A DNA stretch of 35,713 bases from an uncultured SAR86 cluster bacterium (GTDB lineage: Bacteria > Pseudomonadota > Gammaproteobacteria > Magnimaribacterales > AG-339-G14), in contig CABZTA010000007.1 of NCBI GenBank assembly GCA_902528485.1, forward strand, positions 1 to 35,713. The letters are read 5' to 3'. A model generated the notes under the pieces. The model was not told where the DNA came from and did not search any database. It worked only from the letters and a program-made list of their open reading frames with translations. Of this stretch, positions 12,830 to 15,349 are shown one piece after another. The number at the start of each line of letters is the position of its first letter. Position 1 is the first letter of the stretch. The position numbers and the translations under genes are program-made.

Positions 12830-13633
12830 ATGAAAATTGAAGATATTTTTTCGGTGAAAGACAAAGTAGCTCTTGTCACAGGTGGATCAAGAGGAGTTGG
12901 GGAAATGATTGCCTCAGCTTACTTGGCAAATGGAGCGAAAGTTTACATCACCGCCAGAAAAGCAGATGCTTGTAACGACAAAGCCAATGAACTTAGTGAG
13001 AGATATAACGCAGAATGCATTTCAATTCCCAATAATGCCTCAACCCTTGATGGGATAGAAGAGTTGTATAACGAAATTTCTCAAAAAGAATCTAAAATTG
13101 ATATTTTGGTTAACAATGCTGGTGCAGCATGGGGAGAGCCTATTGAAGAATTCTCAGAACTTGGATGGGATAAGGTGATGGACTTAAACGTTAAAAGTAT
13201 GTTTTTTGTTACACAGAAATTCTTGCCTTTATTAAAGAAAGGATCTACCAAAGAAAATCCAGCTAGAGTGATTAATATCGGTTCGATTGATGGTATTAAC
13301 ACACCGGCTTTTGAAAACTATGTTTACAGCGCTTCTAAAGCGGCAGTTCATCATTTGACTAGGCATCTATCCTCAAGATTGGTGCAAGATAATATTTTAG
13401 TAAATGCAATTGCTCCAGGTCCTTTCCCAAGCAACATGTTGGGATCCGCTGTGGCACATAATTATGATCCATTAGTCAAAAGGAATCCTATGAAAAGAAT
13501 TGGAACGGCAGAAGATGTGGGAGGTCTTGCAATTTTTCTGTCTTCGCGAGCAGGAAATTTTACTGTTGGTGAAACCATTATTTGTGATGGAGGATTGACT
13601 GCTTCATCAGGTCACGACCTTACATCTGAATAA
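12830..13633 (+). CDS. SDR family oxidoreductase (RhlG / 3-oxoacyl-ACP reductase-like)
   Basis: ALVTGGSRGVGEMIA, NNAGAAWG, YSASKAAVHHLTRHL, FLSSRAGNFTVGETIICDGG. Confidence 0.93.
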   Translation: MKIEDIFSVKDKVALVTGGSRGVGEMIASAYLANGAKVYITARKADACNDKANELSERYNAECISIPNNASTLDGIEELYNEISQKESKIDILVNNAGAAWGEPIEEFSELGWDKVMDLNVKSMFFVTQKFLPLLKKGSTKENPARVINIGSIDGINTPAFENYVYSASKAAVHHLTRHLSSRLVQDNILVNAIAPGPFPSNMLGSAVAHNYDPLVKRNPMKRIGTAEDVGGLAIFLSSRAGNFTVGETIICDGGLTASSGHDLTSE

Positions 13634-13661
13634 AAAAAACCCCGCATTATGCGGGGTTTTT
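13632..13661. terminator. Intrinsic terminator, probably bidirectional
   Basis: taaaaaaaaccccgcattatgcggggttttt: perfect ccccgca/tgcgggg stem flanked by A and T runs; the longer T run (7) is on the minus-strand transcript. Confidence 0.9.
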
Positions 13662-13745
13662 CAAGAGAAAGTATCTCAACTAATCTCTTACTAGAGGCGG
13701 GACGTACCGGCCTCTAGCCGGAATACGGGTCAACCCGTTGTCAAG
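13662..13745. ncRNA. Candidate structured RNA or structured 3' UTR (strand uncertain, minus preferred)
   Basis: Inverted repeats aagaga(13663-13668)/tctctt(13684-13689), ctagaggc(13691-13698)/gcctctag(13710-13717), ccggc(13707-13711)/gccgg(13717-13721), acgggt(13725-13730)/acccgt(13733-13738); hand count 32/50 G+C for 13691-13740 in an AT-rich window. Confidence 0.4.
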
Positions 13746-13909
13746 AGGCACCCCCTGATATTCCTGCTAAATAGTTAATATTAATTTTGGACCACCTCCT
13801 GTACAGGGTAAATTTTATAAAAACAGTTCTAGAGAATCCCTGATTTATTTCACTAGCTGCGACACCTTTTAATATATTAATACTAGGAGCAAAGAAGAAC
13901 AATAAGAAA

Positions 13910-15349
13910 CTAGCTAAATAACTCAAAAGAATTTGGAAATAAGACATTCATTGCTAACAAGATTAATCCGCAGATAACATTCAGAAATATTCCTGCTCTG
14001 ACCATTCTGCTAATAGGAATATACCCTGATGCATAAACAATTGAATTAGGAGGAGTTGCAACTGGAAGCATAAAAGCACAACTAGCCGCAATAGTCAGCG
14101 GTACTATTAACAACATAGGATTTACTCCAATATTGATTCCTATTCCTGCAATTATTGGAATAAAAGTGATCGTTGTAGTTAGGTTGCTTGTTAATTCTGT
14201 AAGTGCGATTACTAAGGCTATGACGATGAATAATACTATGACAAGATTGGCTTCATTGGGTACTAAGTTTGCTAACCATATAGCGAGACCAGAATCATTC
14301 ACTACGTATGCAAGTGCCATACCACCACCAAAAAGAAAAATTAATCCCCAAGGGAATTTTGATTGAACATCATCCCAATTAATCAAAGCTCTATTATTGG
14401 AGGTTAAGAAAAAAAGACTTAGACCTCCAATCATCGAAATGACTGCGTCTTCTAGAAGAAACATATAAGGTAAGTCATCAATGAGTTTTCTAAAAACCCA
14501 TCCAAGCGCCGTAAATAAAAATACTCCGGATATAATCTTTTCCTCTTTAGTCATGGATCCTAATTCAATCTCTATATCGATTAGTATCTTTTTTGCACTT
14601 CCTGTATCCGAAAAATTAATCGGAAATAAGAATTTAGTCAAAACAATCCATATTATTGGTAAAGAAACTAATGAGAATGGAGCAGCTACCTTGAACCAAT
14701 CTATGAAGCCGATATCAAGATTATAATTTTCAAACGCATATTGAATAAGAACTCCATTAGGTGCTGTTCCTATTGGAGTTGTTATACCTCCCAAAGAAGA
14801 TGAGTAGGCTATACCCAGTAAAAGACACACTTGAAAGTTTAATTTTTGATCTTCGGTAAGATTTTTTATCGAATCGTTAATAGCTTGAATTATTGAGATC
14901 CCAATTGGGAGAAGCATGATAGTTGTTGAAGTATTCATTATCCACATACTTAAAATAAAGCTTGCCAGCATAAATCCTGCAATTAATCTTTCGCTTTTGA
15001 AGCCGGTAATTGTCAAAACAAAGAGAGCAATTCGTTTATGTAAATTCCATTTCTGCATTGCTATTGCGATCATAAATCCACCGGCGAACAAAAATTGAAC
15101 TTTATTCATGTATTCTTTTGACAAAACACCTATTTGTTCGACTCCTAAAAGAGGGAAAGCAACTAAAGGAATCAAAGCTGTTGCAGGAAGGGGAAGAGCT
15201 TCGGTTGCCCACCAAATACCCATCAAAACAAAAATCGCAGCCGTAATTTGTCCTCTATTCGACAAATCATCTGGACTAAAAAAAAATAAAACTACAAAAA
15301 AAAGTATTAATCCCGCCCAAAATCCTATTTTTTTTGAATCCATAAACAA
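13910..15349 (-). CDS. DASS (SLC13) family sodium/anion symporter
   Basis: IWWATEALPLPATALIPL, STTIMLLPIG, SSLGGITTPIGTAPNGVL, SCAFMLPVATPPNSIVYASG. Confidence 0.95.
   Translation of the reverse strand: MFMDSKKIGFWAGLILFFVVLFFFSPDDLSNRGQITAAIFVLMGIWWATEALPLPATALIPLVAFPLLGVEQIGVLSKEYMNKVQFLFAGGFMIAIAMQKWNLHKRIALFVLTITGFKSERLIAGFMLASFILSMWIMNTSTTIMLLPIGISIIQAINDSIKNLTEDQKLNFQVCLLLGIAYSSSLGGITTPIGTAPNGVLIQYAFENYNLDIGFIDWFKVAAPFSLVSLPIIWIVLTKFLFPINFSDTGSAKKILIDIEIELGSMTKEEKIISGVFLFTALGWVFRKLIDDLPYMFLLEDAVISMIGGLSLFFLTSNNRALINWDDVQSKFPWGLIFLFGGGMALAYVVNDSGLAIWLANLVPNEANLVIVLFIVIALVIALTELTSNLTTTITFIPIIAGIGINIGVNPMLLIVPLTIAASCAFMLPVATPPNSIVYASGYIPISRMVRAGIFLNVICGLILLAMNVLFPNSFELFS

What the first reader, a model, noticed from the sequence alone, without database searches (positions are those of the whole stretch)
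13632..13745. Unannotated GC-rich multi-hairpin noncoding segment with alternative pairings, ending at a terminator
Between convergent SDR (ends 13633) and DASS transporter (ends 13910) genes there is about 275 bp without a credible ORF, long for a window where most genes abut or overlap. It contains four successive inverted repeats: the terminator; aagaga(13663-13668)/tctctt(13684-13689); ctagaggc(13691-13698)/gcctctag(13710-13717); acgggt(13725-13730)/acccgt(13733-13738). A further stem ccggc(13707-13711)/gccgg(13717-13721) is incompatible with ctagaggc/gcctctag, and a second gaggc at 13744-13748 could also pair with gcctc, so conformational switching is possible. Hand count gives 32/50 G+C at 13691-13740, well above the surroundings. 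On the minus strand the array precedes a hairpin with a 7-T tail, consistent with a 3'-UTR-derived or independent sRNA. It does not match tmRNA, RNase P, 6S or SRP RNA by conserved motifs I know. That it is an RNA is inference.
Basis: partly seen in the sequence, partly recalled or inferred. Interest (0 to 1): 0.72.

Follow-up and report, generated by a model that had tools for sequence, protein, structure and literature searches.

The report
New ribosome-binding RNA in SAR86 bacteria
The gap between two genes hides a previously undescribed RNA gene, kept by most of the SAR86 group of ocean bacteria, that folds into a conserved shape and displays an unusually strong ribosome-docking site in front of a tiny 14-codon reading frame with a weak start codon.

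Summary
The hairpins are real and belong to a larger structured RNA of about 233 nt on the minus strand (13866 to 13634), with its own promoter and terminator. It occurs once per genome in about two thirds of 203 SAR86-order genomes (35 of 40 high-quality ones, 21 of 22 genera, 4 families) and in none of 366 other Gammaproteobacteria. Compensatory changes are strong: 73 double-changed cells against 30 in shuffles, and 228 against 74 with all families. No Rfam family fits; 6S RNA and tmRNA lie elsewhere in related genomes.

Anatomy: a 5' stem whose loop forms a pseudoknot just upstream of a Shine-Dalgarno (SD) site pairing over 10-12 nt with the 16S tail (30 window genes manage 3-5 nt); then AUU (AUC in a few lineages, never AUG); a frame of exactly 14 codons to UGA; a three-way junction; one or two hairpins; a terminator. 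The frame has no stop in 68 distinct versions, but its amino acids are not conserved, so translation rather than the peptide seems to matter. The likeliest mechanism is a 30S-recruiting, IF3-sensitive regulatory RNA. In two families it directly precedes an EamA transporter gene; in the window's family it stands alone. Existence and structure are near certain; mechanism is inference.

The parts
13634..13866 (-). structured RNA gene, about 233 nt (5' end near 13866, inferred; 3' end in the T-run)
   Evidence: conserved across the order; covariation; conserved -10 box upstream and GGTGTC at the presumed 5' end
13874..13902 (-). promoter-like boxes: -10 TAATAT 13874-13879, weak -35 TTGTTC 13897-13902
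   Evidence: in family f3 the same position is a strongly conserved TATATAAT (53 sequences, up to 1.6 bits per position)
13824..13860 (-). 5' stem-loop S0 (GCAGCTAG 13853-13860 / CTAGAACTG 13824-13832)
   Evidence: equivalent stem with different sequence found in each family
13804..13842 (-). pseudoknot: loop CAGGG 13838-13842 with CCCTG 13804-13808
   Evidence: all five pairs form in 29/35 sequences, 30% when strands are swapped between sequences; CAGGG/CCCTG, AAGGG/CCCTT, GAGGG/CCCTC, GAGAA/TTCTC
13789..13800 (-). extended Shine-Dalgarno AGGAGGTGGTCC, 12 nt pairing (one G-U) with own 16S 3' end GGATCACCTCCTA
   Evidence: GGAGGTG(A/G)TC kept in the loci read
13741..13785 (-). 14-codon frame starting with ATT, ending TGA (ININYLAGISGGAS read literally; the first codon would be fMet)
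   Evidence: same length in 106/107 loci with ATT and in 7 more with ATC; no in-frame stop in 68 distinct versions
13720..13764 (-). helix P2 closing a three-way junction: GGAAT 13760-13764 / ATTCC 13720-13724
   Evidence: 99.4% of cells paired, with UA, CG, AU, GC versions
13742..13757 (-). hairpin H2 CAGGGG-GTGC-CTCTTG (overlaps end of the frame)
   Evidence: mostly one-sided changes, weaker evidence
13725..13738 (-). hairpin H3 ACGGG-TTGA-CCCGT
   Evidence: compensatory changes
13690..13718 (-). hairpin H4 GCTAGAGGC...GCCTCTAGT
   Evidence: 7 of 9 pairs with changes on both sides
13663..13689 (-). hairpin H5 with conserved loop AGTTGAGATACT (families f1 and f2 only)
   Evidence: 5 of 6 outer pairs change on both sides; not seen in the f3/f4 sequences
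13632..13661 (-). intrinsic terminator, usable on both strands, shared with the convergent SDR gene
   Evidence: stem sequence differs between genera but is followed by a T-run

Best explanation
An independent RNA gene of the SAR86 order makes a short structured transcript. Shown by sequence: its 5' pseudoknot and downstream three-way junction flank a short region carrying an SD complementary over 10-12 nt to the 16S 3' end, then AUU or AUC at the right spacing (7-9 nt), then exactly 14 open codons and UGA. Inferred: the RNA captures 30S subunits through the strong SD; the weak start codon makes initiation slow and sensitive to initiation factor IF3; a ribosome that does initiate melts P2 and H2 as it reads the 14 codons. 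So translation of the frame, not its product, reports initiation state or ribosome supply and changes the RNA's fate. In families f3 and f4 this could also govern read-through into the EamA transporter gene just downstream; in f1 and most of f2 the RNA acts on its own, in trans or as a 30S trap.
For: Conservation and single copy. Covariation, including pseudoknot and P2. SD match to the genome's own 16S tail, 12 nt against at most 5 nt for 30 window genes. Start AUU/AUC in the loci read, never AUG/GUG; 14 codons in 106/107 plus 7 AUC loci; no in-frame stop (column-shuffle null 76 stops, within-codon null 43 stops, p = 0.001 or less), while frame +1 has stops in 51/68 and frame +2 in 68/68. No excess of synonymous changes (0.21 vs 0.20-0.21), so the peptide itself does not appear selected. 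Known precedent: IF3 represses AUU (E. coli infC) and AUC (Streptomyces infC) starts (PMC5472188); extended SDs accompany non-canonical AUU/AUA starts in S. aureus (PMC13009471).
Against: No expression, ribosome-profiling or IF3 data. The frame evidence could in part reflect RNA constraints on the same bases, and related sequences are not independent. The minimum-energy fold without the pseudoknot buries the SD against the 3' arm of H2, so the site may be closed by default. What the RNA acts on in f1 and f2 is unknown. AUU/AUC may be conserved simply as RNA sequence.
Confidence: 0.45

Rival explanations
1. Cis-acting attenuator or riboswitch leader of an EamA-type exporter: ribosome stalling or ligand binding lets transcription pass the terminator. 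The stand-alone copies in f1 and f2 are a secondary state.
For: In f3 and f4 the terminator lies directly before an EamA gene (PF00892), in several genera within about 20 nt of its ATG, leaving no room for another promoter.
Against: In f1 (including the window) and most f2 genomes the next gene is convergent or unrelated, yet promoter, RNA and terminator are kept there.
Confidence: 0.2
2. A trans-acting, untranslated sRNA. The purine-rich GGAGGUG region is a seed that pairs with CCUCC-type targets, or the RNA simply masks the 16S tail.
For: The SD-like segment and AUUARUAUU are among the most conserved bases; stand-alone gene with terminator; 16S complementarity.
Against: Does not predict a fixed 14-codon frame without stops while the SD-to-start spacing and the loop lengths downstream vary.
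Confidence: 0.2
3. A dual-function sRNA or mRNA whose 14-residue peptide is the active product.
For: Conserved SD, start, length and stop; a loose ISIY...G..G..F pattern.
Against: No excess of synonymous over non-synonymous changes; residues 5-7, 9, 10 and 12 vary freely; the conserved codon 8 (GGA) coincides with helix P2.
Confidence: 0.1
4. Chance hairpins or a decaying relic.
For: Scans of the window alone show nothing special for promoters or terminators.
Against: Order-wide conservation with compensatory changes.
Confidence: 0.01

Closest known systems
infC (IF3) mRNA start region with AUU/AUC start codon
   Same: Non-AUG start of exactly the types used by infC (AUU in E. coli, AUC in Streptomyces; PMC5472188), suggesting IF3 sensitivity.
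   Different: Here the start opens a 14-codon frame without a conserved peptide in a stand-alone structured RNA, not the IF3 gene.
Extended-SD, non-canonical-start sites of Staphylococcus aureus (PMC13009471)
   Same: Long SD-aSD pairing combined with an AUU or AUA start.
   Different: Those start real protein genes (cvfC1, ccpN, infC); this lies among genes with weak SDs and in a structured RNA gene.
Leader-peptide attenuators (trpL-type, from general knowledge)
   Same: Short frame inside hairpins followed by an intrinsic terminator; in f3/f4 a transporter gene follows.
   Different: No run of regulatory codons; in f1 and most f2 genomes no regulated gene follows in cis.
Dual-function sRNAs such as SgrS or SR1 (from general knowledge)
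   Same: Stand-alone sRNA with promoter, terminator and a small frame.
   Different: The encoded peptide here shows no amino-acid conservation.
6S RNA and tmRNA
   Same: Structured housekeeping RNA genes of similar scale; tmRNA also holds a short frame.
   Different: Both are found elsewhere in related genomes, so this is neither.

Membership tests
Any Rfam 15 family | score at or above a family's gathering threshold | tested here: not met
   window and 13 related loci give only tRNAs; permissive scan gives only sub-threshold matches that all include the terminator hairpin
6S RNA (RF00013) | covariance-model match at this locus | tested here: not met
   6S matches lie at other loci, e.g. G000:C13:10127-10297, in 40 of 41 genomes
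tmRNA (RF00023) | tRNA-like and messenger-like domains, model match at this locus | tested here: not met
   full-length tmRNA lies elsewhere in 29 of 31 genomes; the own, incomplete assembly is not among them
Leader attenuator of a downstream gene | regulated gene downstream on the same strand | tested here: not met
   window: convergent SDR; in f3/f4 an EamA gene is present, so met there but not at this locus
Leader attenuator of a downstream gene | antiterminator competing with the terminator | not tested
   no conserved antiterminator pairing was sought systematically
IF3-controlled non-canonical initiation site | AUU/AUC/AUA start codon with SD at proper spacing | tested here: met
   AUU or AUC at 7-9 nt from GGAGG in the loci read
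IF3-controlled non-canonical initiation site | initiation rises when IF3 is low or its fidelity is impaired | not testable with these tools
   needs an experiment
Peptide-coding small gene | excess of synonymous change | tested here: not met
   0.21 observed, 0.20-0.21 in column and within-codon shuffles
CsrB/RsmZ-type sRNA | repeated GGA motifs in hairpin loops | tested here: not met
   by reading the folds: the conserved GGAs lie in the SD, P2 and H2 arms, not in loops

The most novel reading that the evidence does not exclude
A lineage-wide RNA gene built to capture 30S subunits: an essentially complete anti-SD match plus an IF3-gated start codon opening an information-free 14-codon frame, so that the act of initiating, not a peptide or a nearby gene, is the signal; in some families it has been wired to an exporter gene.
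Probability: 0.3. Interest if true: 0.87.

Novelty: new variant of a known kind. Interest (0 to 1): 0.74.

Why it matters
SAR86 is an abundant, mostly uncultured group of surface-ocean bacteria with small genomes, and a paper search for SAR86 with noncoding RNA found nothing relevant. An RNA kept at this level through genome reduction probably does something basic. If it reports or buffers translation initiation, it would be a compact ribosome-coupled regulator suited to slow-growing cells with weak SDs, and it makes a clear prediction (IF3-dependent AUU/AUC initiation on a peptide-neutral frame) that can be tested in vitro and in E. coli infC fidelity mutants.

Tried and rejected
3'-UTR product of the DASS gene: rejected because upstream genes differ between families and a -10 box is conserved. 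6S RNA, tmRNA and every Rfam family: rejected. GUG inside the SD as the start codon: rejected, since it is in frame only at one of the three SD-start spacings and otherwise runs into a stop or leaves the frame. Reading the window's 68-codon ORF as a gene: rejected, because a codon within the SD that is TGG here is TGA in other genera. Relatives outside the order: the class-wide hits of model R2 (best E 5.5e-4) lack the GGAGGTG(A/G)TC core in the three best loci. Weak hits in G040 (second place) and G180 lack the core and were discarded. A fixed-word search of the order was too loose to be useful. The first alignment mixed strands and was redone. H5 pair counts in the four-family alignment are contaminated by terminator stems of f3/f4; only one search counts for H5. 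Paper searches found no earlier description, though the library holds open-licence papers only.

Full report
Observation. The inverted repeats reported at 13632-13745 are present at the given coordinates, with one off-by-one (GAGGC is at 13745-13749), and the G+C count of 32/50 is exact against 35% for the window. Minus-strand 13634-13760 folds at -58.2 kcal/mol against -36.2 for dinucleotide shuffles (z -5.6); without the terminator z is -3.3.

Conservation. The window is a contig of a 0.89-Mb, 60%-complete genome. A nucleotide search of 61 relatives finds a match in 40, at 94-95% identity within the genus, about 75-81% in other genera of the family, and weaker matches in a second family. Oriented alignment shows an element running on the minus strand from a conserved GGTGTC (13866) to the terminator, preceded by a -10-like box. 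In family f3 the -10 box reads TATATAAT at high information content in 53 sequences.

Distribution. A covariance model of the core from two families (R1) hits 137 of 203 genomes of the order, in all four families and 21 of 22 genera, and no genome among 366 others of the class. A four-family model (R2) gives 138 of 203, and 35 of 40 high-quality genomes, one per genome; its class-wide extra hits are marginal and the three best lack the core motif. The hit in G180 (R1) and the marginal one in G007 (R2) are not convincing, so about 136 genomes are secure.

Structure. On a MAFFT alignment of 16 sequences 87% of cells pair against 53% or less when the partners are slid, with 73 double-changed cells against 30 in shuffles. 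On 36 model-aligned sequences of all families the figures are 90%, and 228 against 74 (this alignment leans towards the structure, and its H5 columns mix in terminator stems of f3/f4). The helices are P2 (GGAAT/ATTCC; also GGAAC/GTTCC, GGAAG/CTTCC, GGATT/AATCC), H2, H3 and H4, plus H5 in f1 and f2. Upstream, a 5' stem S0 has a loop that pairs with a segment just before the Shine-Dalgarno. This pseudoknot is seen as CAGGG/CCCTG, AAGGG/CCCTT, GAGGG/CCCTC and GAGAA/TTCTC; all five pairs form in 29 of 35 sequences against 30% after swapping strands between sequences.

Ribosome site. The segment between pseudoknot and P2 carries GGAGGTG(A/G)TC. The genome's own 16S gene ends GGATCACCTCCTA, so the window's AGGAGGTGGTCC pairs over 12 nt with one G-U. 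Thirty genes of the window have only 3-5 nt of such pairing. Seven to nine nt after GGAGG comes AUU, or AUC in five genomes of one genus and two of another; AUG or GUG was not seen there. From it runs a frame of exactly 14 codons to UGA in 106 of 107 loci with AUU and in the seven with AUC, with no in-frame stop in 68 distinct versions. Shuffled columns give 76 stops on average, shuffles within codons 43, and p for zero stops is 0.001 or less; the other frames contain stops in 51 and 68 of 68. The SD-start spacing varies by one or two nt and the hairpin loops downstream vary in length, but this stretch does not. Synonymous changes are not in excess. The frame is kept open but its amino acids are not.

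Context. In f1 the RNA lies between a DASS transporter (PF00939) and a convergent SDR (PF13561/PF00106). In f2 the neighbours vary (names of the f2 neighbours other than panB are read from the sequence only): a receptor-like or oxidoreductase-like gene upstream, and a convergent gene, panB or others downstream. In f3 and f4 it lies directly upstream of an EamA transporter gene. A gene that keeps its promoter, structure and terminator while its neighbours change is an independent RNA gene; in f3/f4 it may in addition be a leader.

Identity. No Rfam family matches. 6S RNA and tmRNA are present elsewhere in related genomes. No earlier description was found in the open-licence literature.

Mechanism. 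An extended SD combined with AUU or AUC is the signature of initiation sites controlled by start-codon discrimination: E. coli infC starts with AUU and Streptomyces infC with AUC, and IF3 represses such starts (PMC5472188); in S. aureus extended SDs accompany AUU and AUA starts and aid their recognition (PMC13009471). My best explanation is that 30S subunits dock on this RNA and initiate slowly in an IF3-sensitive way, and that translation of the 14 codons, which must open P2 and H2, is the event that matters. The predicted alternative pairing of the SD with the 3' arm of H2 could provide an off state. These steps are inferred; the structure, the SD match and the frame are shown.

Limits. There are no expression data. 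The 5' end is inferred from the -10 box. Related sequences are not independent, so the shuffle tests overstate significance somewhat. The three best rivals are a cis attenuator of EamA, an untranslated sRNA, and a functional 14-residue peptide.

Noticed in passing
window, genes over 100 aa: Genes in this SAR86 window have very weak Shine-Dalgarno sequences: the best contiguous pairing with the 16S tail is 3-5 nt in all 30 genes examined.
   Followed up: partly
G000:C13:8603-8612 and equivalents in G001, G002, G003, G004, G006, G007: A second GGAGGTGGTC site lies about 1.5 kb from the 6S RNA gene in most genomes of the window's genus; its context was not examined.
   Followed up: no
L114, L115, L128 and other f3 loci, just upstream of the RNA: In family f3 a conserved small protein of about 70-80 residues (M.NVI...DPI...VDK.S.K..AFKYFNN) ends about 100-130 nt before the SD; one member tested has no Pfam match.
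   Followed up: partly
f4 genomes G039, G042, G060: Some f4 genomes, two of them near-complete, lack a detectable copy of the RNA: real loss or divergence beyond the models.
   Followed up: no
L255 and L260 (G180:C5:40560-40665, G040:C1:550547-550652): Weak model hits that share only an H5-like stretch ACTTGAGTTGAGATACTTAGTTTCTC; they lack the SD and frame.
   Followed up: partly
window 13741-13947 minus strand: A 68-codon ORF that automatic gene callers may annotate; it is open only because this genus has TGG where other genera have TGA.
   Followed up: yes
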